A stretch of DNA of 36,743 bases from Verrucomicrobiales bacterium. Lineage in GTDB: Bacteria > Verrucomicrobiota > Verrucomicrobiia > Limisphaerales > UBA1096. A program made the translations under genes and the position numbers. Under the pieces are notes generated by a model. The model was not told the origin of the DNA and searched no databases. It was given only the letters and a program-made list of their open reading frames with translations. This document shows, piece after piece, positions 14,257-36,056 of this stretch (the stretch's first letter is position 1; each line of letters begins with the position of its first letter). The stretch covers positions 1 to 36,743 of the forward strand of contig NYYJ01000070.1 of assembly GCA_002686755.1 (NCBI GenBank). The letters run 5' to 3'.

Positions 14257-14261
14257 CCCAG

Positions 14262-14275: not shown

Positions 14276-14319
14276 GGGATGGCTTGTATAACAACGCAAA
14301 TAATATTTAAATCACATTG

Positions 14320-16671: not shown

Positions 16672-16676
16672 GCCCA

Positions 16677-17405: not shown

Positions 17406-17551
17406 TGCTGCGGGTTTTTGGGGGTTGCTTTGGTGGAAAATCGAGGTAGCTTTGCCGTTCAGCGACCTGTGGCATCCCCCTCCCATCCCAGCCATGGGTC
17501 GTAGGCCGTCGGCAAACCTCCACACCCATCCCCTTGCCGGCGGCCGATTTT

Positions 17552-18397: not shown

Positions 18398-18404
18398 TGG
18401 CGGG

Positions 18405-19865
18405 TCAGCGCTTGGCCAAGCGGCCCGGCTCGCGCTGGCCTGTTCCCTTTTGGTTGTGGTCGCCAAGCTCTTCGCGCATCGCTTGGCCAAGCGCCTGCAG
18501 CCTGGCCAACACCTCCGGGTGCTTGTCCTTCACGTCGTTGGTCTCGCCGATGTCCTTCTCCAGGTTGAACAGCGACAGGCCGATCTTGTCCTGGCTGTAT
18601 GCGGTTGGGATGCCGCCGGTGCCGCCCGGCCTGCCTGCCATCGTGCGGTAGCCGTGCGGGAAGTGCAGCTTCCACTTGCCGGAGCGGATGGCCTGCAACT
18701 GCCTGCCATAATAAAAATAATACGCCTCCTGCGGGCTTTGGTCGCTGGTGCCCTTGACGAGATTGATAATGCTTTTACCGTCGATCTTGTGGTTCGGCAG
18801 TTCGGCCCCGATCAACTCCGCGACCGTTGGCAAAATGTCGATCGTCATCGCCGGCGTGCGGCAGACGGTGTCGGCCGGTACGGTTCCGGGCCACCACATG
18901 AGCGTGCTTTCACGGCAACCACCGTCGAACATCGTGCCCTTGCCCTCGCGGAGCGGCGCGGCCGAGCCGGCGTGGTCGCCGTAACTCAGCCACGGGCCGT
19001 TGTCGGAGGTGAAGATGACGAGCGTGTTTTTGTCGAGCTCGTGTTTGCGGAGCGTGTCGAGGATCCGGCCGACGCTCCAGTCGACCTCCATCATCACGTC
19101 ACCGAACAGGCCGGCCCCGCTTTTGCCCTTGAACTTGTCGGAGACATACAGCGGTACGTGCACCATCGAGTGCGGCACGTAGACGAAAAATGAACGCTCC
19201 TTGTTTTGCTCAATGAACGCGACGGCGCGCTCGGTGTATTGCGTGGTGAGCTGCTCCTGGTCTTTGCCGGAAACCTGCGCGTTGATGATTTCGTTCCTGT
19301 CGATGAGCGGCAGGTGCGGCCACCGCTTGAGGCGCTGCTCCATCGGCAGGTGCATCACGCCGGGATGGTACGGCCACATGTCGTTTGAGTACGGCAGGCC
19401 AAAGTAGTCGTCGAACCCGTGCTGCATCGGCAGGAACGGCTTGTGATGGCCGAGGTGCCATTTGCCGTAGATGGCCGTGGCGTAGTTTTTCTGTTTGCAG
19501 ACCTCGGCCAGCGTCATCTCGCTGGCGTTGATGCCATGCTTCGCGCTGGGGCCAAGCGCGCCAAAGATGCCGACGCGCACATTGTAGCAACCGGTGAGCA
19601 AGCCCGCGCGCGAGGCACTACAGACGGCCTGCGTCACGTAAAAGTCGGTGAACTTGCGGCCCTCCTTGGCCATGCGGTCGAGGTGAGGTGTGGGGTATGC
19701 GGTGGCTCCGAATGGGCCGATATCAGCGTAACCCATGTCATCCATGAAAATGACAACGACGTTGGGCGGCCGCTCGGCGGCGGTAATTTGAGTCGGTGAA
19801 ATCAGGCCAAGCGCAACGGCCGCGATCAACCCGCAAAATGATGTAATCCGGATGGCAATGTTCAT
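18405..19865 (-). CDS. Secreted sulfatase (formylglycine-dependent, S1-type)
   Basis: 486 residues. ATG at 19865 begins a signal peptide ([20 protein letters not shown]). The longer frame adds 24 unlikely residues. The metal site is I-F-M-D-D-M-G-Y (Asp42, Asp43). The formylglycine motif is C-S-A-S-R with T-G downstream (Cys82). G-K-W-H-L-G and F-T-S-D-N-G-P-W complete the active site. Such enzymes hydrolyse sulfate esters, often of algal polysaccharides. The final 35 residues carry two perfect palindromes: A-L-G-Q-A (18480-18493) and a C-terminal R-L-A-K-R (18409-18422), the latter directly before the stop. They lie beyond the conserved domain. It is followed at once by the PAP2 gene and preceded by a second sulfatase 68 bp upstream. 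Confidence 0.9.
18409..18422. repeat. Perfect 14-bp palindrome CGCTTGGCCAAGCG
   Basis: Encodes the C-terminal R-L-A-K-R of a sulfatase, directly before its stop codon. Confidence 0.97.
18480..18493. repeat. Perfect 14-bp palindrome CGCTTGGCCAAGCG
   Basis: In the same sulfatase tail, 71 bp from the previous copy, read A-L-G-Q-A. Confidence 0.97.
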
Positions 19866-19933
19866 AGGTCGGGCGAACCCTTCCGCAAAACAGGCCGCTT
19901 GGCCAGCCGTTTTCCGCTTTGCCAGCCGCGCGG

Positions 19934-21445
19934 TCATTTGGCCTGTTTACGGTAATATGCCTCGAGGCGTCGGGTCATTTCGGCTTTGTCGGGACGGGGC
20001 CGTTCACGCACCGGCAGTGCTTGACCATCTTCCCGGCTGAACTCGTCGAGTGTACGGAATCTGGGCTCGGTGTCTCCTGTTTCCTGCTGCCACTTGGCCA
20101 AGGTGCGGCGGAAGCGTTTCAGCCGTTTGGCCTGTGCGGGGTCGGCGGCGAGATTCTTCAATTCGAACGGATCGGCTTGGACGTCATACAACTCCTCCCT
20201 GGCCCGCGGTTGAATGAAGGTGTTCTTCTGTGCATCGACAAGTCTGTCCTCCTTACGGAGCCGGATCATTTCACGATAAGCCACTGAGCGCACGACGTCG
20301 GCCGGTGGTGTATTGGGCAGATCATTGTAAAAGTTGCGGATGTACTTGAATCGCCTGTTGCGGACTGCGCGGACGCGATCCTCGTAGTCATGCCAGTTGC
20401 GTTCCGCGAACACGAAGTCGCGAATGCTCTTTTTCGGATTGCGCAGCAGCAGCAGGAAGCTGCGCCCCTCGAAAACCTTCGGTGTCGACAAACCGGCCAG
20501 TTCTAGGAACGTAGGCGCGATGTCGACCGAGCTGACCAGTCTGTTGCAGCGACTGCCGGCGTCAACACCCCCCGGCCAGTGGACGATGAATGGCGTTTTG
20601 ATGCCGCTGTCGTACAGCGTTGTCTTATCACGCGGGAACGGCCGGCCGTTGTCGCTTATGAACAGCACGAACGTGTTATCGACGGCATTCTGTTCTTTGA
20701 GTTCGGCTATGACCGCGCCAACGAAGCGGTCTAGTCGCGTGATCTCATCGTAGTATAGCGCGTAGTCGCGACGCGATTCAAACGTGTCGGCGACGTATGG
20801 TGGGAGGCGAACATCCCCGGGTTTGTGAGGCTGCTCGAGGATACCCTCGTCGTAGTCGCGGTGCGGATCGAGCGCGGCGAGCCACAAGAAAAACGGCTTG
20901 TCCCTTGGCCGGGACTTGAGCAATGGCAACCACTGGTCGCAGCCGCTGCGGGCGTCGCCGACTGCCTTTTGCACAATCTTTCCGGCCTTTGCTGCCTTGC
21001 CGGTGGGCAGTTGAAAGCCGGACACGTCGGCTTCGCGGACTTCGTCAAAGCGATCCTTTACCGCGTCACCGAGATGCCACTTTCCTGCCGCTGCGGTCCA
21101 ATAGCCGGATGCCTTAAGCAACTCGACGAACGTGAGCCGGTCGGCAGGTAACGGCCAGTGTAGCTGCTCGGCGTCGGTCTGGTGAGGGTAGGTGCTGGTG
21201 ATGAGGCTGGCCCGGCTCGGGCTACAGGAGCTAATGGTTAAAAAGGCGTTAGTAAACTGCATACCGCCCTCAGCTAAGCGATCTAGATTGGGTGTGCGGA
21301 CGCCGGGATTGCCGGTGCATCCGAGGTCGTCCCAAGCCAGGTCGTCGGCAATGATCAAAACAATGTTTGGCCGCGAATCTGCTTGGCCAAGTGCTGTCAC
21401 AGTCAAGCAAGCGGATACCAAAGAAAACAGAGAGAATCGGCTCAT
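19934..21445 (-). CDS. Secreted sulfatase (formylglycine-dependent, S1-type)
   Basis: 503 residues. A signal peptide ends around T-A-L-G-Q-A-D-S, so the palindrome core (21383-21390) encodes the residues at the likely cleavage site. The metal site is [10 protein letters not shown] and the formylglycine motif is C-S-P-S-R (Cys74). Later blocks are A-G-K-W-H-L-G and [10 protein letters not shown]. The C-terminal region is heavily basic. It differs clearly from the neighbouring sulfatase, so the two are not a recent duplication. Another core (20094-20101) encodes T-L-A-K-W-Q near the C-terminus. Activation requires a formylglycine-generating enzyme encoded elsewhere. Confidence 0.9.
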
Positions 21446-21466
21446 TTTGGTGCAGAGGATTGTGAC

Positions 21467-22480
21467 TCAGGCAATGTCCGATCCCGAGTCTTTTCGTTCA
21501 TCATCCAGCTGCGCAAGCAGGTCGCAGAGCGCCGCTAATCGTGGGGTTTCGACCCCAGCGGCTTGCGCCTGGCCAAGCGGCAGGCAAAAGAGCGCGTCCA
21601 GTTCCAACGGCAGACCGCGCTCGAAATCGATCGGTGTCGAGGCACGGTATGCTTTCATGACGCGGGTTCGATTGCGCTGATACTCGCCAAGACTGGGCGA
21701 GAGATTGTGACCAAGCGCGCGGCCCGTGGCGATGACCTCGTTCATTAGTTCCGTGACGAGTTGCTCCCACGGACCGTTGTCGAGCAGGGCGTCCGTAGCG
21801 AGGCAGGGGCCGATGGGCTGCCCGGGGTCGAGTTGCCCGGCGAGCACGGCCTCGAGTCCCGCTGCGCCGACAACGCCGAGTCCGTTGAAAGGAATGTTCC
21901 AGACCAGTTTCTCCCAGTGCGCCCGTTCGAGGTCGGGCGACACATCGACCGGGATGCCGGTGGAGCGGATCAGCGCGGCGACCGCCCCGGCCATCTCATC
22001 CGGCGGGCCGCCGTGGCGGCCGATGACGATCTTGCCGTGGGCGATGTGATGGATGACGCCCGGCTCGACGCGGTTCAGGCAGACAAAGCACATTCCGCCG
22101 AGGATCGGTCGGTCTGGAAATAGGGCCGAAAGCTTAGTCTCGTTGCCCAGCCCGTTTTGCAGCGTCAGCAGGACGGTCTGCTCGCCGACCATCGGCGTCA
22201 GCAGTTCAGCGAGGCGGTGGTTCGCCGTCGACTTGAGCGCGACGACCACGAGGTCGCATGGGCCGATTTCCCCGGGCGATCTGGCGGCCTTTGGATGGGC
22301 ATGAAAATCACCGTCCGCGCTCCGAATATGCACGCCATCGTTGCGAACGGCGTCGTAATCTGAACGAAGCAAAAAATGCACATCGCGGCCAGTTTGGCAC
22401 AAATTTGCCCCGTAAAAGCTGCCCACAGCGCCGCAGCCGACCACGCCGATCTTGTCGAACCTGTCTCCGTTCGTCCCCAT
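21467..22480 (-). CDS. panE: 2-dehydropantoate 2-reductase family protein
   Basis: 337 residues. The Rossmann start is I-G-V-V-G-C-G-A-V-G-S-F-Y-G (about 11-24). The family continues with L-Q-N-G-L-G-N-E, G-M-C-F-V and the catalytic-lysine block H-W-E-K-L-V-W-N-I-P-F-N-G-L. PanE reduces ketopantoate with NADPH in coenzyme A synthesis. Several paralogues in the family act on other ketoacids, so the specific role is tentative. The gene starts 10 bp after the HU terminator hairpin. No promoter is obvious, so transcription may arise inside the HU 3' end or by read-through. A one-mismatch palindrome sits near the 3' end (GCCTGGCCAAGCGG, about 21567-21580), read P-L-G-Q-A. Confidence 0.8.
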   Translation of the reverse strand: MGTNGDRFDKIGVVGCGAVGSFYGANLCQTGRDVHFLLRSDYDAVRNDGVHIRSADGDFHAHPKAARSPGEIGPCDLVVVALKSTANHRLAELLTPMVGEQTVLLTLQNGLGNETKLSALFPDRPILGGMCFVCLNRVEPGVIHHIAHGKIVIGRHGGPPDEMAGAVAALIRSTGIPVDVSPDLERAHWEKLVWNIPFNGLGVVGAAGLEAVLAGQLDPGQPIGPCLATDALLDNGPWEQLVTELMNEVIATGRALGHNLSPSLGEYQRNRTRVMKAYRASTPIDFERGLPLELDALFCLPLGQAQAAGVETPRLAALCDLLAQLDDERKDSGSDIA

Positions 22481-22490
22481 CGATGCACAA

Positions 22491-22522
22491 AAAAAGCGCC
22501 CAGCAAAACGCGGGCGCTTTTT
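22491..22522 (-). terminator. Rho-independent terminator after the HU gene
   Basis: A perfect 11-bp stem (22491-22501 with 22512-22522), whose GC part is GCGCCC/GGGCGC, closes a 10-nt loop. A-runs become a U-tract on the minus-strand transcript. The same structure also ends in a T-run on the plus strand. It lies 18 bp beyond the HU stop and 10 bp before the panE start. Confidence 0.85.
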
Positions 22523-22540
22523 ATTGGAATGAGCTAAACG

Positions 22541-22831
22541 TCAGCTGGCGATGGAGTCCTTCGCGGCCTTGGCCACGGTGAACTTCACCACGCGCTTAGC
22601 GGGGATGTGGATCGTCTCGCCGGTGGCGGGGTTTCGTCCCATGCGAGCTTTCCGGTCAACCAGCTTCAGCTTCCCAACACCCGGGAACGTGAAAGCACCA
22701 GTCGACTTGGTGCTCGAGATGGCCAAGTCAGCCAGGTTGGCCAGTAGGTCGGTGGCCTGTTTCTTCGTGAGACCGTTTGCCTCGGCAACAGCCGCGGCGG
22801 TCTGTGATTTCGTCAATGGTTTGTCTGACAT
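22541..22831 (-). CDS. hup: HU-family DNA-binding protein
   Basis: 96 residues. It has the helical N-terminus (L-T-K-S-Q-T-A-A-A-V-A) and F-P-G-V-G-K-L, then the DNA-binding arm G-R-N-P-A-T-G-E with I-P-A-K-R-V-V-K-F-T. All are diagnostic of the HU/IHF family. HU is a small dimeric nucleoid protein that bends DNA. It is monocistronic: a strong terminator follows, and a 237-bp gap precedes it that contains a perfect 16-bp palindrome. The window's iterated palindrome is absent from this gene. HU versus IHF subtype cannot be settled. Confidence 0.93.
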   Translation of the reverse strand: MSDKPLTKSQTAAAVAEANGLTKKQATDLLANLADLAISSTKSTGAFTFPGVGKLKLVDRKARMGRNPATGETIHIPAKRVVKFTVAKAAKDSIAS

Positions 22832-22870
22832 ATCGTTATTGATGATACGGGTTATTATTACTCCTTGTAG

Positions 22871-22886
22871 CAGTGGTGCACCACTG
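22871..22886. promoter_or_regulatory. 16-bp palindrome upstream of the HU gene, possible operator
   Basis: CAGTGGTGCACCACTG is a perfect palindrome, 39 bp upstream of the HU start. It is unrelated to the iterated CGCTTGGCCAAGCG. It lies just downstream of a candidate -10 hexamer, where a repressor site or 5'-leader hairpin would act. Confidence 0.45.
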
Positions 22887-22893
22887 GCAGTCG

Positions 22894-22922
22894 GTTTTAC
22901 GAGCGGCCTCCGGGCTTCGCAA
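22894..22922 (-). promoter_or_regulatory. Possible HU promoter
   Basis: On the minus strand TTGCGA (22922-22917) and TAAAAC (22899-22894) are 17 bp apart, each matching four of six consensus bases. The predicted start would fall in or beside the 16-bp palindrome. Confidence 0.25.
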
Positions 22923-23068
22923 GCAGAAAAACCAATAAAAATGAACTATTTTTCACCTTGTTTGAGCCCTGTTATTTGACCCGGGGAACCGGTTTGGAGC
23001 TCTCCATCCCCTTGAGTCGGAACAAGCTGTGTAGTGCCTTGGCGACAGTCCGGATCAGCTCAATTAAT

Positions 23069-26000
23069 TTAGCGACTCAAAAAAAGACCGGTTGCCACCC
23101 CACGCTGGCTCACGGCAAGGTCGGGTTGCCCGTCCTCGTTAAAGTCGGCAGCCACCACCGCGCGCTGCTCTCCGTGGAGCATGATGCCGCTTTCAGACGC
23201 AGGCACGGTGGAGAAATTGCCGGTACCATCGCCACGCAGCAACAGACCCCTGCCACTGTCATAACGCGAGTGGCGATCGCGCACACCGAAGTCATTTTGC
23301 GTCAGGAACAAATCAGCCAAGCCATCGCCGTCAAAGTCGTTGGCACACAGGCCATACGCCGGTGAGAACTGGGCGGCATCCAGTAGTGGACGCATCTCAA
23401 ACCGCCCTTTTTTATTTAGGAAAACAGCATTCGAAAGAGTCCGAATTCCGAGCGATTTCATCTCGTGAAACGCCGGGCCGATGATATTTGGGAGAACCGA
23501 GGCGGCGAACACACCATTGTGTGTGATCCTTTCCTGTACCTGCGGGAAGGTTTTTGTGAACACATCCAGTTTGCGGATCGGTTTCCATTGGTTGGTCACC
23601 GTGTCGGCGAATGCCTCGGCAATCTCCATCACGCCATCCCCGTCGGCGTCGCCGTAAAACAACCGGACCGGCTTAGGGTACAACTCGTAGGCCGTGTTGC
23701 GGCCGGCGTTGCTCGCGGCGATGTCGAGCCTGCCATCGCCGTCAAAGTCCGCCAGTGCCACCCCGTGCCACAAACCGGTGTGCTGGGTCAGGCCCCACGG
23801 CTCGCTTGCGTCGATAAACGTGCCCCCCTCATTGAGCAGCAGCATCACGCTGCCCCATTCGCAGGCAAGCACGAGGTCGGGGTCGCCGTCGGCATCGATG
23901 TCGCCGGCGGCGCAACCGCTCACGAGCCCGGCCTTGGCCAAGGGCGAGCCGACGAAGTTGCCGCTTTGGTTGATGAACAGTTGCGATGGAGCTGCGACCG
24001 GAAATTGGCCAAGCGACGAGCCGCCGCCGATGAACAGGTCCATGTCTCCGTCTCCGTCCGCGTCGAGCGCGGCGGCGCAGCTAGGCATGCCGTCGAAGGC
24101 CAGGCGCTTGGCCAAGCGCAGCCGCCCGGTGGCGACGGTGTAGAGCATCGACGGCTCGGAGAGGTGGAGCAGTTGCAGCGCTTGGCCATTGTTGAAAACA
24201 ACCACCCCTGTTCCGCCCACCGGCAGAGAGTTCGGCGACTCGGCGAATCGTCCACGGCCGTCGTTGATTAGGAGCAACAGCCGGGCGTCGAGGGTGTCGG
24301 TGATGATTAAGTCTCGGTCACCGTCACGGTCAATATCTGCGGCAGCCAGGGCCGGCCCGGCTTGGTTCAGGCGGCGCGGCAGCCCGGGCTGGATAGTAAA
24401 ATCATCGTCAAAGGTCGCTAGATGAGCATGCACAATCTGTTCGGTTGAATGAGTGAAAAGTGGCTTTTTTTCGCTTTTTTTTCGCTTTGCTGGCTGGAAA
24501 TCGGACGGTTGGATGTCGTACAGCCGTCCCGGCATGGCGTTGGGCACGGTGGTGCGTGTGCCGTCCCGCCAATCGACCTCAATGGTGAACATTTTGCCAG
24601 CTTGGGCGGCGAAGGTACGCTGCGCTTGGTCGCCGCTAACGTATCGGCCGCCGCTCATGATTTCCTGCGACTGGGGCGCTTGGCCAAGAGTGCCGATGAT
24701 CCGGATGCGGCTACCGGTGCCTTCGGTGTTTTTGCCGGGGCCGGAAAGGCGGATGGCGACCCGGGGCGCGGCGGCATTGTTTCGATAAAGCAGCGCCGGC
24801 CCTTTGAGGCAGTTGACCACGACGTCGAGATCACCGTCGTTATCGAGGTCCCCGAGCGCCATGCCGTTTCCGTCATGCGCGTCGTCGAAACCCCACCGGG
24901 CACCGACCTCCTCAAAGCGAAGGTTGCCCAAATTCCGGAAGGCGACGTTAGGCGTGTCGAGCGGGGGAAAGAGAAAGATGGTCTTGCGTTTCTGCGCCAC
25001 CGACAGGTTGCCGAGCCGATTGATGCGGATCTGCGTGTCTAGGTCATCGGTGTCGAATTCGAACCCGTTGGTGACAAGGATGTCCTCCCAGCCGTCGAGA
25101 TCGACATCGAGGAAGATGCTGCTCCACGACCACTCGGTAGCGGCCACGCCGGAGAAGTAGGCAGTCTCCGCGTAGGTGCCGTCCCCGCGGGCCACATACA
25201 GGCAATTGCGCCGGCTCTGCGGCCGGTGCGTGAAGTCGCCCGGTGCAATCTTCGCGCCGGGGACCGTGCCCTGCTGCGTGAGCCGCCGCTCATGGCTGCG
25301 GCTGAGCATCTCGACCACGAAAAAGTCGTCGTGGCCGTCACGATTGATGTCTGCAAAATCCACACCCATCGAAGAATAGCTGAGCTGCCGGAGCGACAGC
25401 GGGGAAATCTCGCGGAAGTTCCCGGTGCCATCATTGATCCAGCATCGATCCTCGGTGAATCCGTCGTTGGCGATGTACAAATCGGGGGCGCGATCGCCGT
25501 TCATGTCGCGGAAAATCACACTCAAGCCCTGGCCGCGATACGGCCCGGCAAGCAGCCTGCCGTCGTGTGTCCGGAACCTGTCATCTGTCCAATCCAGTCG
25601 CGAAAACCGGCCGTTTCCGTCGTTCAGGTAGAACTCATCCGGCTCGCCGTATTCAAACATCTGGTTGTCAATGAGCTTGATCCGGCTCGCGTACCGACCC
25701 CGGACCGTGAGCGTTCCATTGGTGCGGACAATGTCGAGTTTCCCGCCGTCCTTGAGCACCGACTTGGCACCGTAGTTGGCAATGTAAAGGTCGAGGTCGC
25801 TGTCGCCGTCGATGTCGGCGAGGGCGATTGAACTGCTTCCGTAGCGCGTGCCGATCCCGGCGTTGACGGTGGCGTCCGTGAACGCGCCGCGGCCGTCGTT
25901 GCGAAAGAGCCGGTTGGGCTGGCCCATCGCCGTGACCAGTAGGTCGAGGTCGTGATCGCCGTCCACATCGGCAAACACCGCCCCGGTGGAGAACTGCCCC

Positions 26001-26434
26001 GGACAGGCGGTGCCGCTCGCCGAGGTGGTATCCTCAAACCGCCAGCCGCCGAGGTTGCGATACAACCGGTTGTCGCCGTCGAGCCGGCAGAGGTATACGT
26101 CGCACAGGTCGTCGCCGTCATAGTCGCCCAGAGCGACGCCGGACCCGTTCAACAGGTTTTTGTTCGCGATGAGGATCGCTGTTGAAAGGGTGTTCGTGAA
26201 CTGCACGCCGGTCTGTGCCTGGGGCATGCGCGTGAAGCCGGGTTGGCCGGTGCCGGGGTCGGCCAGCCCTGCCCAGTGATGGTCGCCCTCCTCCTGCCAC
26301 TCCAACGCAACGCCCTTGGCCAAGCCTAACTCGGCGGCGAGCAGCAGCGTGGCCAGACCTCTCGAAACTGGACTTTTTGCGGAAAATAAATCCGTGAAAA
26401 TCCTTGAAATCTGTGTCTGGGAAACAGCAGTCAT
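23069..26434 (-). CDS. Large FG-GAP/VCBS repeat protein with ASPIC/UnbV domain (CRTAC1-like)
   Basis: 1121 residues. The ATG at 26434 overlaps the methyltransferase TGA by one base; the frame stays open upstream only through that gene. A weak signal-like hydrophobic stretch is at about 28-45. Two integrin-type propellers are built of Ca-binding D-x-D-G-D-x-D-L repeats (for example D-V-D-G-D-H-D-L-D-L-L, D-L-D-N-D-G-D-L-D-V-V), covering roughly residues 60-540 and 690-1110. Between them an ASPIC/UnbV domain (about 545-640) ends at G-R-L-Y-D-I, followed by a lysine-rich linker. Such proteins are secreted or surface proteins, abundant in this type of bacterium, with unknown ligands. Five palindrome cores lie in it, three within one 180-bp stretch (23934, 24005, 24108). 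Confidence 0.85.
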   Translation of the reverse strand: MTAVSQTQISRIFTDLFSAKSPVSRGLATLLLAAELGLAKGVALEWQEEGDHHWAGLADPGTGQPGFTRMPQAQTGVQFTNTLSTAILIANKNLLNGSGVALGDYDGDDLCDVYLCRLDGDNRLYRNLGGWRFEDTTSASGTACPGQFSTGAVFADVDGDHDLDLLVTAMGQPNRLFRNDGRGAFTDATVNAGIGTRYGSSSIALADIDGDSDLDLYIANYGAKSVLKDGGKLDIVRTNGTLTVRGRYASRIKLIDNQMFEYGEPDEFYLNDGNGRFSRLDWTDDRFRTHDGRLLAGPYRGQGLSVIFRDMNGDRAPDLYIANDGFTEDRCWINDGTGNFREISPLSLRQLSYSSMGVDFADINRDGHDDFFVVEMLSRSHERRLTQQGTVPGAKIAPGDFTHRPQSRRNCLYVARGDGTYAETAYFSGVAATEWSWSSIFLDVDLDGWEDILVTNGFEFDTDDLDTQIRINRLGNLSVAQKRKTIFLFPPLDTPNVAFRNLGNLRFEEVGARWGFDDAHDGNGMALGDLDNDGDLDVVVNCLKGPALLYRNNAAAPRVAIRLSGPGKNTEGTGSRIRIIGTLGQAPQSQEIMSGGRYVSGDQAQRTFAAQAGKMFTIEVDWRDGTRTTVPNAMPGRLYDIQPSDFQPAKRKKSEKKPLFTHSTEQIVHAHLATFDDDFTIQPGLPRRLNQAGPALAAADIDRDGDRDLIITDTLDARLLLLINDGRGRFAESPNSLPVGGTGVVVFNNGQALQLLHLSEPSMLYTVATGRLRLAKRLAFDGMPSCAAALDADGDGDMDLFIGGGSSLGQFPVAAPSQLFINQSGNFVGSPLAKAGLVSGCAAGDIDADGDPDLVLACEWGSVMLLLNEGGTFIDASEPWGLTQHTGLWHGVALADFDGDGRLDIAASNAGRNTAYELYPKPVRLFYGDADGDGVMEIAEAFADTVTNQWKPIRKLDVFTKTFPQVQERITHNGVFAASVLPNIIGPAFHEMKSLGIRTLSNAVFLNKKGRFEMRPLLDAAQFSPAYGLCANDFDGDGLADLFLTQNDFGVRDRHSRYDSGRGLLLRGDGTGNFSTVPASESGIMLHGEQRAVVAADFNEDGQPDLAVSQRGVATGLFLSR
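24104..24119. repeat. Perfect palindrome extended to 16 bp
   Basis: GCGCTTGGCCAAGCGC in the second propeller of the FG-GAP protein, read R-L-A-K-R-L. Confidence 0.97.
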
Positions 26435-27027
26435 CAGCGTTCCATTCTCCACTCGTTCATTAGCTCCTTCCCGGTGCGGCTTTCGTAGGAGCGGGGTGTC
26501 CAGCGGCGGAGCAACTCGAACGACCCGCCGAATCGCTCGTCCAGCTCGGCGGCCGTACTGCTGAACGGCGGCTCGCCGTTGTCTTCGGTGATCATGTAGT
26601 TGACCGCGAGGTAAAGCCCACCCGGCTTGAGCCAGCCACGGAGGGCCTTCGCGTAATCGCCGCGCCGCCCCGGCGGGATGGCGCAAAAGAGCGTGTGCTC
26701 AAACACAAGGTCATACTGCTGGTGTGGCGTGTCGCCCAAAAAGTCACCGATGCGGTGGTCGATCTCGAGGGCTTCCGCCTTGGCCAAGCGCTTGGCCAAA
26801 GGCACGGAACTGGGGGCGATGTCGAGCCCGGTCACTATCCAGCCAGCCCGGGCCAGGGCGCGGGCATCGTGGCCGTGGCCGCAGCCGGGCACGAGCGCCT
26901 GGCCAAGCGGGGCTTCAGGGCATTCCGCGAGATAATCGACCAAGCCGGGCGACGCCTCGCCGTGATCCCAGAAGGTGTCGTTGGCCCGGTAAAGCGCTTC
27001 CCAATCCCTGTCGTCGTTGATTTGCAT
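26434..27027 (-). CDS. SAM-dependent methyltransferase, TPMT-like
   Basis: 197 residues from the ATG at 27027. The opening W-E-A-L-Y-R-A-N-D-T-F-W-D-H-G-E-A-S-P-G-L is characteristic of the thiopurine methyltransferase branch. The SAM motif is A-L-V-P-G-C-G-H-G-H-D (45-55) and the second acidic motif is V-T-G-L-D-I-A. These small enzymes methylate thiols, selenium or tellurium oxyanions, or halides. Its stop overlaps the start of the FG-GAP gene by one base. Two palindrome cores 12 bp apart (26780, 26792) give V-P-L-A-K-R-L-A-K-A-E-A, and a one-mismatch copy near 26898 gives P-L-G-Q-A just before the SAM motif. The long upstream extension of the frame, antisense to the next gene, is rejected. 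Confidence 0.82.
   Translation of the reverse strand: MQINDDRDWEALYRANDTFWDHGEASPGLVDYLAECPEAPLGQALVPGCGHGHDARALARAGWIVTGLDIAPSSVPLAKRLAKAEALEIDHRIGDFLGDTPHQQYDLVFEHTLFCAIPPGRRGDYAKALRGWLKPGGLYLAVNYMITEDNGEPPFSSTAAELDERFGGSFELLRRWTPRSYESRTGKELMNEWRMER
26779..26799. repeat. Two palindrome cores in 12-bp tandem inside the methyltransferase
   Basis: Cores at 26780-26787 and 26792-26799 share the AAGCGCTT junction. The 12-bp period keeps the frame and gives L-A-K-R-L-A-K. Confidence 0.95.
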
Positions 27028-27069
27028 TGACCCTGTCCGCAGAGCGGTTAGGAACTTGGCCGAGTTTCT

Positions 27070-27981
27070 ATGAAGAATCAAATCCTTGCTGGGCTCATTG
27101 TGGGCATGATGGTCGCGACTCCGGTTTGGGGCGCGAAAAACAAGGTCGTGAAAATCGGGGAACGCCCCGAGAGTGTGACCAAGGGATTCGGCGGCAAATA
27201 CTACGTCACAGTGATGAACTCCCCCGACAAGGAGGGCGACGCAGTGATCAAGGTGCTCGACGGCGACAAGTCGAAGGTCTTCGCCAAGGGACTGAACGAG
27301 CCGAAGGGCATCGCCTTCACTGGAAAATATCTCGTCACCGCCGACCAGACGCGTGTGATGAAAATCGACCGCAAGGGCAACGTCAGCGTGCTGGCGGACA
27401 AGAAGGATTTCCCGCGCGAGGTCAGCTTCCTCAACGACGTGGCCGCATCGCACGATCGCAAGAGCGTGTACGTGACCGACATGGGCGCGATCAGCAAAAT
27501 GTTCGACCCCGACAAGGAGCGCACACTTTGGCCGCTCGACAGCAAGCAGGCCAAGGAACTGCCGGCCCAGGGTTGTGTGTACAAGATTTCGGTCGAGGAC
27601 GGGAAGATTACCGACGCCATCGCCCCCGGGCAGGCGAACATGCCGGGGCCGAACGGCGTGGGCCGCTCCGGTAAAACAGGCCTGTTGATGGGCGACTTCT
27701 TTACCGGCAACATCGTGCGCAAGACGGCGAAGGGCAAACTGCGCGTCATCACCAAGGGGCTGCGCGGCGCGGATGCCGTCGACCCGGACGGCAAAGGTGG
27801 CATCTACGTCTCGAGCTGGACACAAGGCAAGGTTTGGAAATTGACCAACAACGGCAAAAAGAAAGAAGTGGTCCTCGAGGGCCTCAAGTCGGCCGCCGAC
27901 TTTTTCGTCGACCGCAAGGCGAAGAAGCTGATCGTGCCGGACATGCTCGCCGGGACGCTGATTTTTGTTGATATCAAGTAG
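27070..27981 (+). CDS. Periplasmic SMP-30/NHL-like beta-propeller protein
   Basis: 303 residues with a signal peptide (M-K-N-Q-I-L-A-G-L-I-V-G-M-M-V-A-T-P-V-W-G). The rest is a lactonase-like six-bladed propeller. Repeated elements include P-K-G-I-A-F-T-G-K-Y-L-V-T-A-D, N-D-V-A-A-S-H-D-R-K-S-V-Y-V-T-D, G-P-N-G-V-G and G-G-I-Y-V-S-S-W. The SMP-30/gluconolactonase fold binds a metal and may hydrolyse lactones, but the metal ligands are not certain here. It is divergent from the methyltransferase (42-bp gap) and has no palindrome copy. Confidence 0.72.
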   Translation: MKNQILAGLIVGMMVATPVWGAKNKVVKIGERPESVTKGFGGKYYVTVMNSPDKEGDAVIKVLDGDKSKVFAKGLNEPKGIAFTGKYLVTADQTRVMKIDRKGNVSVLADKKDFPREVSFLNDVAASHDRKSVYVTDMGAISKMFDPDKERTLWPLDSKQAKELPAQGCVYKISVEDGKITDAIAPGQANMPGPNGVGRSGKTGLLMGDFFTGNIVRKTAKGKLRVITKGLRGADAVDPDGKGGIYVSSWTQGKVWKLTNNGKKKEVVLEGLKSAADFFVDRKAKKLIVPDMLAGTLIFVDIK

Positions 27982-27983
27982 CC

Positions 27984-28049
27984 AAAGCCCGTTTGATTTG
28001 CGCCTCCGGGTGGCACGGCCACTGGCCTACTGCTCGGGGGCTTTTTGTT
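27984..28049 (+). terminator. Terminator or attenuator immediately before trpS
   Basis: AAAGCCC (27984-27990) can pair with GGGCTTT (28038-28044), followed by a T-rich tail to 28049. An inner hairpin GTGGC/GCCAC (28010-28014 and 28018-28022) lies in the loop. The tail abuts the trpS ATG (28051). It may end the upstream propeller gene or attenuate trpS; the long loop makes a simple terminator less certain. Confidence 0.4.
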
Positions 28050-28050
28050 T

Positions 28051-29016
28051 ATGATCATACTTTCAGGAATCCAGCCGTCGGGCACGCTGCACGTGGGCAA
28101 TTACTTCGGCATGATGCGCCCCGCGATCGAATTGCAGGAACAGGGCGAGGCGTACTACTTTATCGCCAACTACCACTCGATGACGTCGGTGTTCGACGCC
28201 GATGAGCGGCGCAAAAACACGATCGGCGTCGCACTCGACTTTCTTGCGTGCGGGCTCGACCCGGCCAAGTCGGTCTTCTTCCGGCAAAGCGATGTGCCGG
28301 AGGTGTGCGAACTGACTTGGCTGCTGACTACACTCACGCCGATGGGCCTGCTCGAGCGGTGCCACAGCTACAAGGACAAGATGGCCAAGGGCCTCTCGCC
28401 TAACCACGGCCTGTTCGCCTACCCGGTTTTGATGGCGTCGGATATTTTGATTTACGACTCCAACATCGTGCCGGTCGGCCGCGACCAAAAGCAGCACGTC
28501 GAGGTCACGCGCGACATCGCGATCAAGTTCAACCAGACCTACGGCGAGACGTTTGTGATCCCGGAGCCGCAGATTCGCGACTCGGTGGCGGTCGTCCCCG
28601 GCACGGACGGCCAGAAAATGAGCAAAAGCTACGGCAACACCATCGACATTTTCGGCGAGGAAAAGCCGCTGCGCAAAACCATCATGCGCTTGGTCATGGA
28701 CAGCCGCCCACCCGAGGAGCCCAAGCCGGACGCCGACAAAAACATCGCCGTGCAACTGCTCCGCCTCGTCGCCCCGGAAGTCGTGGCCAAGGATTGGGAG
28801 GAACGCCTACGCGCCGGCGGACTGGGCTACGGTGACCTGAAAAAGGCGCTGTTCGAGCAGTACTGGGAGTTTTTTGCGGAGGCCCGAGCCAAGCGCGCCG
28901 AACTGGAGAACAATCTCGATTTTGTGAATCAAGTCCTGAAGGAAGGCGCTGAAAAGGCCCGCGAACGGGCGACCACGGTTCTCGACCGCGCCCGCAAAAA
29001 CTGCGGCTTGGCCTGA
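28051..29016 (+). CDS. trpS: Tryptophanyl-tRNA synthetase
   Basis: 321 residues from the ATG at 28051 (TTG two codons earlier is less likely). This class I synthetase charges tRNA-Trp. The HIGH equivalent is T-L-H-V-G-N, preceded by the family's S-G-I-Q-P-S-G. The KMSKS loop is G-Q-K-M-S-K-S-Y-G-N. P-V-G-R-D-Q-K-Q-H-V-E and P-V-L-M-A-S-D-I-L are TrpS-specific. Length is normal. It has no palindrome copy, as in several other conserved genes here. It converges on ccsA with only 6 bp between the stop codons. Confidence 0.95.
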   Translation: MIILSGIQPSGTLHVGNYFGMMRPAIELQEQGEAYYFIANYHSMTSVFDADERRKNTIGVALDFLACGLDPAKSVFFRQSDVPEVCELTWLLTTLTPMGLLERCHSYKDKMAKGLSPNHGLFAYPVLMASDILIYDSNIVPVGRDQKQHVEVTRDIAIKFNQTYGETFVIPEPQIRDSVAVVPGTDGQKMSKSYGNTIDIFGEEKPLRKTIMRLVMDSRPPEEPKPDADKNIAVQLLRLVAPEVVAKDWEERLRAGGLGYGDLKKALFEQYWEFFAEARAKRAELENNLDFVNQVLKEGAEKARERATTVLDRARKNCGLA

Positions 29017-29022
29017 CTACAT

Positions 29023-31053
29023 TCAGACGCCGAGGGCGTTGAGCAGGTAAAAGAAAACCCCGGCGGCGCTGGCGACGATCACGAGTCCTTCCACGACCAG
29101 CAGCGCGACGGGCGGCAGGCCAAGCGCGCCGCCTTGGCCGGTCGGTTTGCCAGCTTGGCCAAGCGTACCGAGCATCAGGCTGCCGGTCATCACGACCAAC
29201 TGCGCGCAGACGAACACCATCAGCCAGGCGAACGCCTTGTCCATGAAGCCGTACGAGTGCAGGCCGATGCCTAGCATGTTTGTCCCGAAGAAAGACCAGG
29301 CGGTGACAGCGTTGCCGAAGATCGCCATGGCGACGAGGCCGCGCTCGCGGATCAGCCCGCCCCATCGCGCGTGCAGGATGGCGGCGTTCCAAATGACGAC
29401 CATCAGAGCGCCGTTCTCTTTCGGGTCCCAGCCCCAGAACCGGCCCCACGACTGGTCTGCCCAGATGCCGCCCAGCACCGTGCCGACAAAGCTGAACAGC
29501 GTCGCAAAACAGACGATACCGTAGATCATCTTGGTGAGCGCTGTGCGGTTGGCCTTGTTGAACGGCACTTTGTTGGACACGAAGTCGCGCACCACAAAGA
29601 CAATCGCGAGGAAGCCGGCGACGAACGTGGCCGAGTAGCCGATGGTGATGATCACCACGTGAGTCGCGAGCCAGAAGTTGGTGTCGAGCACGGCCTGCAG
29701 CATCTCCATCGTGTCGCCGCTAAGCGAAAGCCCTCCGGCGACGAGCAGCGTGACAAAGCCGACCGCGCTGGCGACGACGTTCCCGATGCCGTCCCGGTAA
29801 ATGCGCTCGAGAATCAGCCCGAGAATCACCGCACCCCAGCCGACGAACACTGCGGCGGAGTACAGATTGGTCACCGGCGGACGGCCCTCGAGCCACATGC
29901 GGAAGATCAGCCCGGAGGTGTGGATGACGGCGGCCAGTGCGATCAGATTGTAGGCGGTGCGGTTGGGCCACTTGGCCAAGGTCAGCCAGCCACCGCAAGC
30001 CAGCAGGAAGGCCAGCACATAGAGGATTTCGCACTTGTAAAACGGGTCGAAGTTATTGAATGCAAACTCTTTGCCCGTTTTGCCAAGCGCGGTGCTGTGT
30101 CCGTTTTTTCCGAGATAATCGCGGTAACCGGCAAGGGCATTGTTGAATTCCTCGGGCTTGTCGTTTTTGTAGGCGGTGAGCATCCCGGCGTACGCCTTGG
30201 CGGCGGGATCGATTTCAATTTTCCAGTCGTTGTCCGCTGCCGCAGCGTTGGTGATGCTGTGAAACAGGCTCGAGTTGAGCGAGCGCCAACTGGCATTGCT
30301 GTCGTTCCCCGGCGGGATGACCCGGGGCCAAAACATCACGCCGCCCCGGTCCCCTTCATGTGCCCCGGGTTCGAGCAGCTTGTCGATCAATCCGGTGAAC
30401 TGGTGGTGATCTTCCTCGTCATGCTCGGCGCCGGTTTCGTGTGCCCGGGCGGCAGCCATTCCGATCGGGAAAATCTCCTCGAACTGTTTCAACTCGCCGG
30501 CAAAATCGACCGAGCGCTGCGGCCGGAAGCTCTTGGCCAAGCGTTGGTAAATCAGCAGTGAGTCGGCGACCGCCTTCAGCGATTTTTCGTACGGCGTGCG
30601 CAGCGAGACCTCCTTGGAGTGGATGCGCCCGCTCTCCCGGGCCAGGCGCTCGAAGTTGTTGCCGGCAGTGATGTCGTTCACCGAGAAATGTTTCTCCTCC
30701 TTGGCCAAGCGGAGGTGATCCTTGATTTCCTCGTTATCGATGCGGAACACCGGCCGGGTGCGGGCCACGTCCGGCTTGGCCGCCAGTTCCAGCAGCCATT
30801 CGATCGCCGGGATGGTTTCCACCTCGCCGCCGTCCCGGGCGTAGCGGCCGGTGGACTTGTGGCGGATGACCTGCATGGCGTTCCGGGCGGTCGCATCGAT
30901 CGGCTGGATGCGCCCGTCGAGCAGCACCGGCAGGCGTCCGAAGCCGTACAGATCCGGCTGACCGTCGGCGACGCTGGGCATGCGCACCAGCCCCATCAAG
31001 GCCCACAAGGCCATGACCGTGACTGCAACGACCGGGACGGACAGCTTTTTCAT
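29023..31053 (-). CDS. ccsA: Cytochrome c maturation protein CcsA/ResC (System II)
   Basis: 676 residues. One N-terminal helix is followed by a long periplasmic region (about 30-340) and then eight or so membrane helices. The heme-handling WWD signature reads W-G-R-F-W-G-W-D-P-K-E-N-G-A, with histidines in A-V-I-H-T-S-G and G-I-G-L-H-S-Y-G. With ResB it forms the System II heme exporter and cytochrome c synthase, which attaches heme to CxxCH proteins outside the membrane. Its start overlaps the resB stop by 4 bp. Palindrome cores at 29155, 29972, 30533 and 30701 encode T-L-G-Q-A-G-K, T-L-A-K-W, R-L-A-K-S and R-L-A-K-E; two of them are in the periplasmic region. Confidence 0.9.
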   Translation of the reverse strand: MKKLSVPVVAVTVMALWALMGLVRMPSVADGQPDLYGFGRLPVLLDGRIQPIDATARNAMQVIRHKSTGRYARDGGEVETIPAIEWLLELAAKPDVARTRPVFRIDNEEIKDHLRLAKEEKHFSVNDITAGNNFERLARESGRIHSKEVSLRTPYEKSLKAVADSLLIYQRLAKSFRPQRSVDFAGELKQFEEIFPIGMAAARAHETGAEHDEEDHHQFTGLIDKLLEPGAHEGDRGGVMFWPRVIPPGNDSNASWRSLNSSLFHSITNAAAADNDWKIEIDPAAKAYAGMLTAYKNDKPEEFNNALAGYRDYLGKNGHSTALGKTGKEFAFNNFDPFYKCEILYVLAFLLACGGWLTLAKWPNRTAYNLIALAAVIHTSGLIFRMWLEGRPPVTNLYSAAVFVGWGAVILGLILERIYRDGIGNVVASAVGFVTLLVAGGLSLSGDTMEMLQAVLDTNFWLATHVVIITIGYSATFVAGFLAIVFVVRDFVSNKVPFNKANRTALTKMIYGIVCFATLFSFVGTVLGGIWADQSWGRFWGWDPKENGALMVVIWNAAILHARWGGLIRERGLVAMAIFGNAVTAWSFFGTNMLGIGLHSYGFMDKAFAWLMVFVCAQLVVMTGSLMLGTLGQAGKPTGQGGALGLPPVALLVVEGLVIVASAAGVFFYLLNALGV

Positions 31054-32669
31054 GCGGCGGCCTTTCGTCTTTTGTTGAACGTGAACAGGTGGGTCAGGAA
31101 CTGGATCAGCATGCCCAGCCCCACCATCGCACAGGAGATGTACGGTGTCATCCAGCCGGGATTACGCACGACCTGCAGGACGGTGGCCTTGGGGTTCTTG
31201 GGATCGAAGCTGGCCTGAAAATAGGTTTTGCCGTGGGTGCGCAGCGGGTGGTTCATCCAGATGTTCACCTCGCGTTCGGCCCCGGTGGCGCGTTCGCGCA
31301 CAATGACAAGGCTGGAGAAGTTCCGTGCCTTTTCGGTGCCCTGAAACTTGTCGTGTTTGAAGTCGACCAACTCGATGTCGTACGGCGTGTAATGGCGCGT
31401 GAAGCGCAGCGCCAACTCATACTCCTTACCGTCGTGCTCGAATGTCTGCTCCGGGATCGGTGTCGTCAGCGCGCCGAACATCGCGGCGACCATCCACGTG
31501 CCGAGGTCGGCGCCGTCGGTCGATTTCAGCCGCAGGTAGGCGGCGGGGAAGTTGACTTCCTCGAGCGACGTGACTGAGTCCTTCGGGGTGGAGGCGAGCT
31601 CGCGGCCCTTGCCTTCCGTGGCCCGGCTTTTCTCCGCTTGGCCAAGCGAGACGAGGTCGGAGTTGGTGTAAAAGTCGAGCACGGTCACCTCGAACGGCAG
31701 GGTGCCCATCCGGTGGGTGGTGCCTTTGCCAAGCGCCCCGGCCGGGATGGCGGCGACGGTGTCGGTGTCCGACCGGCTTTTGTCGATGATCACCAGTTCG
31801 CAGTCGCTGCTGCTGATGGAGTAGCCTTTGGCCTGCCCCTCCACGAGCCGGAGGTTGCTTTCGACCTGGTACTTGTCGGTGACCAATTGGCCCAGCAGCA
31901 TGAGGATCAGCCCGGCGTGAGTCAGGAAGATGCCGATTTTTTTCCGCGAAAAGGTGAACCGCTGGAAGTGGGCGGCGAGCAGATTGACCAGCAGCACGAT
32001 GCCGACGAGGTAGCCGCCGACGAATGGAAACTGGAACATCACCGGATAACGGGCCGAGCGGACGTACTCCCGGAAGGCTTCCTTTTCCCGCATCACCGCT
32101 TCGGTGTCGCCGGTGATCTTGTAAAACCACATCTCCGGCAGCGAGCGGTAGGAGAGGGAATGGATGACACCCAGCGTCGTCGTCGGCCGGCCGTCGCGCG
32201 TACCGCTCAACTCGACGTAGGTTCCGCGGTTGCCGTCCACCTCGAACGGCTGCGTTGCCTCCGCGAGTTGGTCTTGGCCAATCCCCCCCAGGCCAAGCTG
32301 GCCGCGCCACCGGTTGACGTTGTCCAGCAGCCCGGTGCCCTTGGCCAGCTTGGTGACCGAGATGACCGCCTTGTCGTCGCCGTGTTGTGCCTCGAAATTG
32401 ATGAGGCTGAACTGCGCCGGCTCCGTCTCGTTCCAGTGCGCTGGCGGTTGCCACTCGGAGCCGCCGAGCCGAATCTGCGCCCAGCCCGCGCCGCCGATGC
32501 TTTCCGGCACGAGGAAGTAGCTGCGGAAATATTTTTTCTGTGCGTCGTACAGTCCCTGATCGACCTGCGCCAGCGTGCCGACAAACACCAGCACCATCGC
32601 CGCAATCAGGCAGACCACAGTCAGGCGCAGCGAGCACCAAAACTGAACGAATAGCTTGAGGAACGGCAT
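31050..32669 (-). CDS. resB: Cytochrome c maturation protein ResB with an inserted domain
   Basis: 539 residues from the ATG at 32669, which overlaps the upstream stop by one base. The ResB plan is present. TM1 (about 8-34) ends in G-T-L-A-Q-V-D-Q-G-L-Y. TM2 (about 215-235) is G-G-Y-L-V-G-I-V-L-L-V-N-L-L-A-A-H, and TM3 is about 245-263. A large periplasmic domain follows, then TM4 and a basic tail. Between TM1 and TM2 lies an extra domain of about 140 residues (about 67-205), with N-V-N-R-W-R-G-Q-L-G-L and W-F-Y-K-I-T-G. It is homologous to the two domains of the preceding gene and is not usual in ResB. A perfect palindrome (31635-31648) encodes S-L-G-Q-A-E-K. Works with CcsA. Confidence 0.87.
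   Translation of the reverse strand: MPFLKLFVQFWCSLRLTVVCLIAAMVLVFVGTLAQVDQGLYDAQKKYFRSYFLVPESIGGAGWAQIRLGGSEWQPPAHWNETEPAQFSLINFEAQHGDDKAVISVTKLAKGTGLLDNVNRWRGQLGLGGIGQDQLAEATQPFEVDGNRGTYVELSGTRDGRPTTTLGVIHSLSYRSLPEMWFYKITGDTEAVMREKEAFREYVRSARYPVMFQFPFVGGYLVGIVLLVNLLAAHFQRFTFSRKKIGIFLTHAGLILMLLGQLVTDKYQVESNLRLVEGQAKGYSISSSDCELVIIDKSRSDTDTVAAIPAGALGKGTTHRMGTLPFEVTVLDFYTNSDLVSLGQAEKSRATEGKGRELASTPKDSVTSLEEVNFPAAYLRLKSTDGADLGTWMVAAMFGALTTPIPEQTFEHDGKEYELALRFTRHYTPYDIELVDFKHDKFQGTEKARNFSSLVIVRERATGAEREVNIWMNHPLRTHGKTYFQASFDPKNPKATVLQVVRNPGWMTPYISCAMVGLGMLIQFLTHLFTFNKRRKAAA
31635..31648. repeat. Perfect 14-bp palindrome CGCTTGGCCAAGCG
   Basis: In the periplasmic domain of ResB, read L-G-Q-A. Confidence 0.97.
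32298..32334. repeat. 37-nt direct repeat, copy in resB
   Basis: Matches 32909-32945 in the upstream gene at 36 of 37 positions (mismatch at 32322 versus 32933). It encodes the N-V-N-R-W-R-G-Q core of the shared domain. Confidence 0.93.
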
Positions 32670-33808
32670 CACGGCTTGGGAAGCTGGATGGTTTGAATGA
32701 ACTCCATGAATGCGCCTTTCTCGGCGGTGACCACCGCGCTTGGCCCGCTCATTTTGTAAAACCAGGTCTGGCCGTCCGCCGGGTGGAATACGCTCAACGA
32801 GGCGCTGGTCTCGCCGATGGCCTCGACGAGCGTGGCCGGCGTCCCGCTGATGGTCACCGTCGTGGTCGCCTTGGCCAGGCCGGCGGCATCGACCGGCGGA
32901 AGGCCGGACTGGCCGCGCCACCGGTTGACGTTGGCCAGCAGCCCGCCGACATCGCCGGGGAAGGTCATCACCGTGATCTCCGCCTTGCCGTTCCCGGCGG
33001 TGAAGTTGCCCAAGCGCATCGAGGTCGGCGGCTTGGCGGCCCAGCCGTCCGGCTTGGCCCACGTCGGCGCGGCCGCCGCCGGAGGGGGTGCGGGGGGACG
33101 CGCTGCATCGGCCTCGGCCATCAGCCGGTCAAAGTTCACCTCGCTGGCCCCGGGTTGAAACTGCAGCGTGGCGAGAAAATTAGTGAAGGCGCCGTAATGC
33201 GGCTCGATCGCCCCGGCCGGGCCGGACAGCTTGAAGAACCAACCCACTTGGCCAAGCACCAGCGACGCGGTGACGATGCGCGGCGGGGTCTCCTGTCCCG
33301 CGAGCGGTTCGGTGCCGGCGATGTCGTACAACCGCCCGTCGTGTCCGCCGATCTCGATCGGCTTGGCCAAGGTTTGCAGCGTGGCGTCGTCCGCCGGGCC
33401 AAGGCCGACCTGCTTGCGCCACATGTTGACGATCATCGGGTTCTCCGCCAGCCGCGCCGGCAGCGGGATGGCGCTGACCCCGGCGTTGCCCGGCAGCACG
33501 AAGGAGAAAGTCGTAAGGCTTGTTGCGTCCGTGGTGTCGGTCCAGCCGTCCGGCTTGGTGAACCGGATCAGCGAGTCCGGGGCTGGCTTGGCCGGGGAGG
33601 GTGGAAGTGCGGCGGCCGTGGGCGGCGGGACCGGGTTTTCCCTTGGGACATTGTAGGTGCGCACCTCGCCGCTGTTGCCGGAAAAAATCTCGAACAGCAA
33701 CACGGCCAGCAGCATGACGACGATGAATGCGCCGTCCCGTAAATAGTTGGGCTGTGGTTTCTCCACGCGGACAGGCAGAGGGACGCGCCGGGCGGACGAC
33801 TCATTCAC
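32669..33808 (-). CDS. Membrane-anchored protein with two copies of an uncharacterised domain
   Basis: 379 residues from a GTG start (ACGGG just upstream). There is a single N-terminal membrane anchor (about 27-42) and a Pro/Ala-rich stretch. Two related domains follow (about 85-216 and 252-377). Each opens with K-P-D-G-W, has a central W-R-x-Q-x-G-L, then W-F-[FY]-K-[LM]-S-G-P, and closes with G-A-F-x-[EN]-F. The same domain is inserted in ResB, the next gene, whose start overlaps this stop by one base. I do not recognise the family. Position as first gene of the System II operon and the shared domain suggest a periplasmic partner of ResB/CcsA; this is inference. Palindrome cores at 33248 and 33363 are read V-L-G-Q-V and T-L-A-K-P. 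Confidence 0.75.
   Translation of the reverse strand: MNESSARRVPLPVRVEKPQPNYLRDGAFIVVMLLAVLLFEIFSGNSGEVRTYNVPRENPVPPPTAAALPPSPAKPAPDSLIRFTKPDGWTDTTDATSLTTFSFVLPGNAGVSAIPLPARLAENPMIVNMWRKQVGLGPADDATLQTLAKPIEIGGHDGRLYDIAGTEPLAGQETPPRIVTASLVLGQVGWFFKLSGPAGAIEPHYGAFTNFLATLQFQPGASEVNFDRLMAEADAARPPAPPPAAAAPTWAKPDGWAAKPPTSMRLGNFTAGNGKAEITVMTFPGDVGGLLANVNRWRGQSGLPPVDAAGLAKATTTVTISGTPATLVEAIGETSASLSVFHPADGQTWFYKMSGPSAVVTAEKGAFMEFIQTIQLPKP
32909..32945. repeat. 37-nt direct repeat, copy in the gene upstream of resB
   Basis: Partner of 32298-32334. Such identity over codons that could vary silently suggests a recent duplication or gene conversion between the neighbouring genes. Confidence 0.93.
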
Positions 33809-33924
33809 CCCGTTCCCGGCGGACGGGAGAGACTACCGGCGAACGCCCGTTTGGCAACCCTCTTTGCATCGCCAAAGCCGGTCATTTTTTGCACTCTGCC
33901 CCCGCGGATGGAGACGCCGCAGTC

Positions 33925-36043: not shown

Positions 36044-36056
36044 CGGGTTTGGGGCG

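What the first reader, a model, noticed from the sequence alone, without database searches (positions are those of the whole stretch)
26779..26799. 12-bp-period tandem copies suggest an in-frame growth mechanism
Seen: overlapping copies sharing AAGCGCTT occur at 26780/26792, at 1950-1971 (second decayed) and at 5704-5724 (first partial). A 12-bp unit adds exactly four codons (L-A-K-R). Inference: slippage or unequal exchange at the palindrome may create new copies that then decay.
Basis: partly seen in the sequence, partly recalled or inferred. Interest (0 to 1): 0.55.

Follow-up and report, generated by a model that had tools for sequence, protein, structure and literature searches.

The report
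Helically phased genome-wide palindrome
The 12-base repeats are two overlapping copies of a ten-letter DNA palindrome found about once per thousand bases in one group of bacteria, and neighbouring copies sit on the same face of the DNA helix, as if one protein grips several of them at once.

Summary
The repeats are real, but the 12-bp array is a side effect. The feature is a highly iterated palindrome, CTTGGCCAAG (extended GCGCTTGGCCAAGCGC): 2619 copies in the 3.5-Mb genome against 16 for the reversed letters. It is abundant in 18 of 21 genomes of one Verrucomicrobiota genus, low in 3, and near background in 37 other families of the order. Neighbouring copies are helically phased: 747 pairs 14-250 bp apart peak at 10.46 bp (power 72.5; jitter-null maximum 9.2 of 500). 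Phasing is motif-specific, holds in coding and non-coding pairs, and is absent from HIP1 in a Nostoc plasmid. Extended sites sharing GCGC lie exactly 12 bp apart; flank sharing times the general short-range excess accounts for the 12-bp pairs. The focal pair shows no net length change in 9 of 9 relatives; of 12 aligned pair loci, 8 show substitution only, one a 12-bp gain, one a 12-bp loss, two are messy. Growth by slippage is real but minor. Best reading: sites of an unidentified multivalent DNA-binding protein. Four methyltransferase families are nearly absent, against the methylation model for HIP1.

The parts
26779..26799 (.). focal pair: two TTGGCCAA palindromes 12 bp apart sharing GCGC (perfect 20-bp palindrome 26780-26799)
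   Evidence: arose by substitution, no net length change in 9 of 9 relatives
26434..27825 (-). ORF containing the focal pair (TPMT-like methyltransferase domain at residues 272-439); the pair reads L-A-K-R-L-A-K
1950..1971 (.). palindrome plus a one-mismatch copy 12 bp on, between ORFs
5704..5724 (.). truncated copy plus full palindrome 12 bp on, directly after the stop codon (5701) of the GlgC-like ORF
16323..16345 (.). decayed 12-bp-period pair (CGCTTGGCCAGA x 1.9)
14462..14479 (.). 9-bp-period variant (TGCTTGGCC x 2), another spacing
3317..3356 (.). two CTTGGCCAAG copies 30 bp apart just after the stop codon at 3304
7194..7242 (.). two TTGGCCAA copies 41 bp apart (near four helical turns) inside an ORF
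23933..24116 (.). three copies (TTGGCCAA at 23934, 24005, 24108)
235..36663. all 36 CTTGGCCAAG (48 TTGGCCAA) copies across the window; individual positions are listed
   Evidence: 10-mer counted on both strands 72, against 0.26 expected from a second-order Markov model

Best explanation
CTTGGCCAAG, with preferred flanks giving GCGCTTGGCCAAGCGC, is a genus-specific highly iterated palindrome. It is most likely the recognition site of a dimeric DNA-binding protein that contacts several sites at once. SHOWN: about one site per kb, in genes and between them; conservation above background; differences between species mostly by substitution; neighbouring sites within about 250 bp fall on the same helical face (period 10.46 bp); pairs are depleted at about 0.3-1 kb; four common DNA methyltransferase families are nearly absent from the genus. 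INFERRED: a multivalent protein bridges, loops or wraps DNA between same-face sites, and selection keeps sites that fit; the role is probably chromosome organisation. The 12-bp pair is the closest packing of two extended sites, because the GCGC flank of one serves as the flank of the next. Once two near-identical sites lie 12 bp apart, occasional 12-bp slippage gains or loses a copy.
For: Abundance: 2619 vs 16 control in G000; 41-3274 in 20 congeners; 0-39 in 37 other families. Phasing: 747 pairs, best period 10.46 bp, power 72.5; best period of a 2.1-30 bp scan is 10.46 in G000, 10.46 in G008 and 10.48 in G015; G004 sample 31 pairs, power 10.7 at 10.46. Jitter null maximum 9.2 of 500; 727 flank-dissimilar pairs still 69.9; all three classes of distance modulo 3 are phased. 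Same-gene pairs n=513 |z| 0.32, non-coding n=63 |z| 0.34, mixed n=133 |z| 0.27. Of 457 hexamers the top nine are sub-words of the motif; best of 382 unrelated words is 8.4. Range: phased to about 255 bp, excess 1.4-1.7x up to 213 bp; pair correlation about 0.6 at 300-1000 bp and about 1 beyond 1.5 kb. Conservation: 97 of 128 G000 sites kept in G008 vs 38.9% of all 8-mers; 45 of 87 in G015 vs 19.7%; 330 of 643 over all comparisons. 12-bp pairs: 31 observed vs 11.2 from density times flank preference (2.8x), the same factor as other short in-phase distances (4.87 vs 1.73).
Against: No protein was identified. Two small samples do not show the period: G003 (38 pairs, best 2.1) and the pooled rest (38 pairs, best 8.82). 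The 172-213 bp bin is weak (power 1.9). Congeners share many sites, so the species are not fully independent. Sites with an in-phase neighbour are only slightly better conserved (2.40x local expectation vs 2.02x with no neighbour and 2.03x antiphase). 12 bp is itself 1.5 bp off one turn. The peak 0-20 bp after stop codons (5.9-7.1 per kb) and its palindromic flanks (first 25 examples printed) suggest an extra RNA-level use.
Confidence: 0.6

Rival explanations
1. DNA uptake sequence: the palindrome marks self DNA for a competence receptor and spreads by uptake-driven recombination, as in Haemophilus and Neisseria (comparison recalled).
For: Density near one per kb, genus-specific, differences by substitution, enriched after stop codons in longer palindromes. 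ComEC family PF03772 found in 9 of 21 genomes, in 3 of 3 of those at least 90% complete, and in 0 of the 4 lowest-copy genomes.
Against: Known uptake signals are not palindromic (recalled), and uptake alone does not predict same-face phasing over 250 bp. ComEC was not found in 12 of 21, though many of those genomes are incomplete.
Confidence: 0.17
2. Slippage or unequal exchange at the palindrome is the main source of new copies.
For: Clean 12-bp gain at L202:8182, 12-bp loss in G014 at the locus of L141:539, and the G004 trpC triple. Gaps of exactly 12 are 18 of 486 near sites and 66 of 8924 elsewhere, with non-independent rows.
Against: 8 of 12 aligned pair loci without length change at the pair; non-shared sites differ by substitution in 286 and by gap in 27 comparisons; most sites are single (1846 of 1943 counted as having no exact copy 12 bp away); no outward extension of the period.
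Confidence: 0.06
3. Methylation-linked highly iterated palindrome, made and kept by methyl-directed repair, as Elhai proposed for HIP1.
For: Same class of element and similar density; Elhai links HIPs to methyltransferases (PMC4390886: abstract, the first of eight parts and search passages seen).
Against: PF00145 in 1 of 21, PF01555 in 0 of 21, PF02086 in 0 of 21, PF02384 in 3 of 21 at borderline scores, while 10, 11, 4 and 13 of 14 control genomes matched. The model does not predict helical phasing, and HIP1 in a Nostoc plasmid is not phased.
Confidence: 0.08
4. Protein-level or codon artefact: amphipathic helices such as L-A-K-R-L-A-K impose the spacing.
For: 76-83% of counted sites are coding in G000, G008 and G015, and frame offset 0 (L-A-K) is commonest.
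Against: Non-coding and cross-gene pairs are phased too, frame combinations (0,0), (0,1) and (1,1) are all phased, distances not divisible by 3 are phased, and unrelated hexamers are not.
Confidence: 0.03
5. Transcription-terminator or RNA hairpin element.
For: Peak 0-20 bp after stop codons; printed examples sit in longer palindromes.
Against: Most sites lie inside genes (661 of 830 in G000) and RNA hairpins do not predict helical phasing.
Confidence: 0.06

Closest known systems
HIP1 (GCGATCGC) of cyanobacteria and alternate HIPs (Elhai 2015, PMC4390886)
   Same: Short palindrome at about one per kb, far above expectation, with palindromic extensions and clustering at short range (HIP1 1.5-1.9x between 14 and 250 bp)
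   Different: Different sequence and phylum; helically phased (|z| 0.31, n=747) where HIP1 is not (|z| 0.03, n=174); none of the four methyltransferase families tested is shared by the genus
DNA uptake sequences of Pasteurellaceae and Neisseriaceae (recalled)
   Same: Density, lineage specificity, post-stop inverted repeats
   Different: Palindromic single unit and same-face phasing
SeqA binding to pairs of hemimethylated GATC sites and LacI-type looping (recalled)
   Same: Protein binding to two sites favoured on one helical face
   Different: Thousands of copies of a longer palindrome; no sign of methylation enzymes; protein unknown here

Membership tests
HIP1 / highly iterated palindromes | Palindrome of 8 or more bases, far over-represented genome-wide, near one per kb | tested here: met
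   2619 vs 16 control in 3.50 Mb
HIP1 / highly iterated palindromes | Sequence GCGATCGC (HIP1 proper) | tested here: not met
   Motif is CTTGGCCAAG
HIP1 / highly iterated palindromes | A cognate DNA methyltransferase in genomes rich in the palindrome (Elhai abstract) | tested here: not met
   PF00145 1/21, PF01555 0/21, PF02086 0/21, PF02384 3/21 borderline; other families not tested and genomes incomplete
HIP1 / highly iterated palindromes | Copies arise by nucleotide substitution (title of a work cited in PMC4390886) | tested here: met
   286 substitution vs 27 gap differences among 643 comparisons
HIP1 / highly iterated palindromes | No helical phasing (measured here on HIP1, not a published criterion) | tested here: not met
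   Phased here, HIP1 not (one 1.04-Mb plasmid plus 50 kb of another)
DNA uptake sequence | Preferential uptake by a competence receptor | not testable with these tools
   Needs an uptake assay
DNA uptake sequence | Competence channel ComEC present | tested here: inconclusive
   9 of 21 genomes, incomplete assemblies
12-bp tandem repeat / minisatellite | Copy number varies by whole units between relatives | tested here: inconclusive
   Clean in 2 of 12 aligned pair loci, plus one triple with a single ortholog
12-bp tandem repeat / minisatellite | Arrays of three or more copies are usual | tested here: not met
   1 triple among 52 pairs at 12 bp (the triple counts as two of them) in 1.95 Mb

The most novel reading that the evidence does not exclude
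A bacterial chromosome carries a genome-wide set of palindromic sites whose neighbours are held on one helical face, written through coding sequence at the cost of amino-acid choice. That would be a sequence-specific chromatin-like architecture built by an unknown multivalent protein, in a genus that lacks the methyltransferases thought to explain such palindromes.
Probability: 0.45. Interest if true: 0.9.

Novelty: new variant of a known kind. Interest (0 to 1): 0.77.

Why it matters
The function of highly iterated palindromes is an open question. Helical phasing is a physical fingerprint that a neutral repair bias does not predict, and it gives a direct route to the binding protein: a phased two-site probe. 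It also shows that thousands of sites can be imposed on coding sequence by what looks like a DNA-level constraint. I found no description of this motif in the library: a search for the literal 8-mer gave 690 papers, of which I saw only the first 20 listed, none on this subject; searches on over-represented palindromes in Verrucomicrobiota, on helical spacing and on uptake sequences showed nothing on it in the listings seen. Most subscription papers are not in that library.

Tried and rejected
Slippage as the main origin: rejected for the focal pair and 7 other loci, but kept as a minor process after one search showed 12-bp gaps that my first two checks, limited to few loci, had missed. An early impression that arrays never exceed two copies was wrong: a triple exists in G004.

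Generic genome periodicity: ten control words and 382 unrelated hexamers show no comparable peak. A+T content around sites shows period 3 and only a trace at 10.4.

Alternative palindromes in the three low-copy species: none strong; the sampled stretches are A+T-rich (0.41-0.43 GC) and two of the three (G019, G005) list the same 8-mer among their over-represented palindromes.

Full report
THE OBSERVATION. The unit, however, is not a 12-bp repeat but the palindrome CTTGGCCAAG, present 36 times in the 36.7-kb window.

SCALE. CTTGGCCAAG occurs 2619 times in the 3.50-Mb genome, against 16 for the same letters read backwards, which is also a palindrome. In 20 other genomes of the genus it occurs 41 to 3274 times. 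The three lowest are G001 (41), G019 (43) and G005 (57). In 37 genomes of other families of the order it occurs 0 to 39 times. Four congeners match public records by equal size and counts: a Verrucomicrobiales bin (PL34863bin_23), ETNP1_MAG_26, UBA673 and a bin from ERR599062. UBA673 is placed only as unclassified Verrucomicrobiota in NCBI; that the group is marine would be my guess from the bin names.

HELICAL PHASING. Over 1.83 Mb from ten species (1943 TTGGCCAA sites) there are 747 pairs 14-250 bp apart. Their distances show a period of 10.46 bp with power 72.5. G000, G008 and G015 give 10.46, 10.46 and 10.48 as best periods of a 2.1-30 bp scan (powers 27.5, 19.1, 18.3). Two small sets do not show it: G003 (38 pairs) and the pooled rest (38 pairs). 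A further sample from G004 (31 pairs) has power 10.7 at that period. Moving each site by up to 15 bp gives at most 9.2 in 500 trials, and removing pairs with similar flanks leaves 69.9. The signal is in same-gene pairs, non-coding pairs and mixed pairs, and in the three frame combinations with more than 30 pairs. Among 457 common hexamers the nine most phased are all sub-words of the motif (36 to 105); the best of 382 unrelated ones reaches 8.4. Phasing is lost beyond about 255 bp. Sites are in excess below about 200 bp and depleted at 300-1000 bp, then return to random by about 1.5 kb.

CONTEXT AND CONSERVATION. With simple gene calls made in the script, sites run at 0.90-1.14 per kb in genes and 1.45-2.06 per kb between them, with a peak of 5.9-7.1 per kb in the first 20 bp after stop codons. 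Many of the 25 post-stop examples printed sit in longer palindromes. G000 sites are kept in 97 of 128 cases in G008, where 38.9% of all 8-mers are kept, and in 45 of 87 in G015, against 19.7%. Over all comparisons 330 of 643 are kept; the rest differ by substitution in 286 and by a gap in 27.

THE 12-BP PAIRS. Because the preferred flank is GCGC, one site's right flank can serve as the next site's left flank, at exactly 12 bp. In stretches not chosen for holding a pair, 31 pairs are seen, against 1.73 from density alone and 11.2 once flank preference is included; the remaining 2.8-fold excess equals that at other short in-phase distances (4.87 against 1.73). 29 of those 31 pairs have GCGC in the middle. 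The focal pair aligns with no net length change in 9 of 9 relatives; none of the nine has both copies intact. Of 12 pair loci with at least one aligned relative, counted by merging orthologous entries by eye, 8 show no length change at the pair, one (L202:8182, G015) is 12 bp longer than in 7 of 7 relatives, one (L141:539) lost 12 bp in G014 while 5 other relatives kept full length, and two intergenic-looking loci changed by 13-18 and by 6-34 bp. A triple in the trpC gene of G004 is 12 bp longer than the only ortholog held. Slippage is therefore real at existing pairs but is not how most pairs or sites arise.

COMPARISON. The closest known element is HIP1. HIP1 sites in Nostoc sp. UHCC 0926 plasmid pn1 plus 50 kb of a Trichormus plasmid (704 sites, 174 pairs) show no helical phasing (power 0.1 at 10.46 bp). 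Elhai links HIPs to methyltransferases (PMC4390886; abstract, first of eight parts and search passages seen). Here PF00145 is in 1 of 21 genomes, PF01555 in 0, PF02086 in 0, and PF02384 in 3 at borderline scores. General dinucleotide periodicity near 10-11 bp is known in many genomes (PMC7537859; abstract and section list seen), but that concerns dinucleotides, and unrelated words here lack the signal.

LIMITS. The genomes are incomplete, the samples are stretches, the species share ancestry, and no binding protein was identified. The protein model is an inference from phasing, conservation and spacing.

Noticed in passing
L130:19631-19775 (own genome): A stretch of about 145 bp matches many places in congeners, an interspersed repeat apparently distinct from the palindrome.
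   Followed up: no
L408:353-386 (G004, trpC): Three copies at 12-bp period reading ERLAKRLAKRLAK, 12 bp longer than the one ortholog held.
   Followed up: partly
post-stop regions, sampled G000, G008, G015 stretches: Sharp peak of the motif 0-20 bp after stop codons, often inside longer palindromes that look like hairpins.
   Followed up: partly
G001, G005, G019: Sampled stretches of the low-copy congeners are A+T-rich (0.41-0.43 GC) and the genomes keep mild enrichment (41, 57, 43 copies against 1 each for the control), so copy number may track base composition.
   Followed up: partly
coding sites, G000, G008, G015: Frame offset 1 (W-P) is used 457 times and offset 2 (G-Q) only 70, against 741 for L-A-K, so the motif puts tryptophan-proline into proteins (sums; dipeptide counts).
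   Followed up: no
window 41-90: A 25-bp unit repeated twice at 96%.
   Followed up: no
genus, ComEC search: ComEC found in 9 of 21 genomes and in none of the four with the fewest copies.
   Followed up: no
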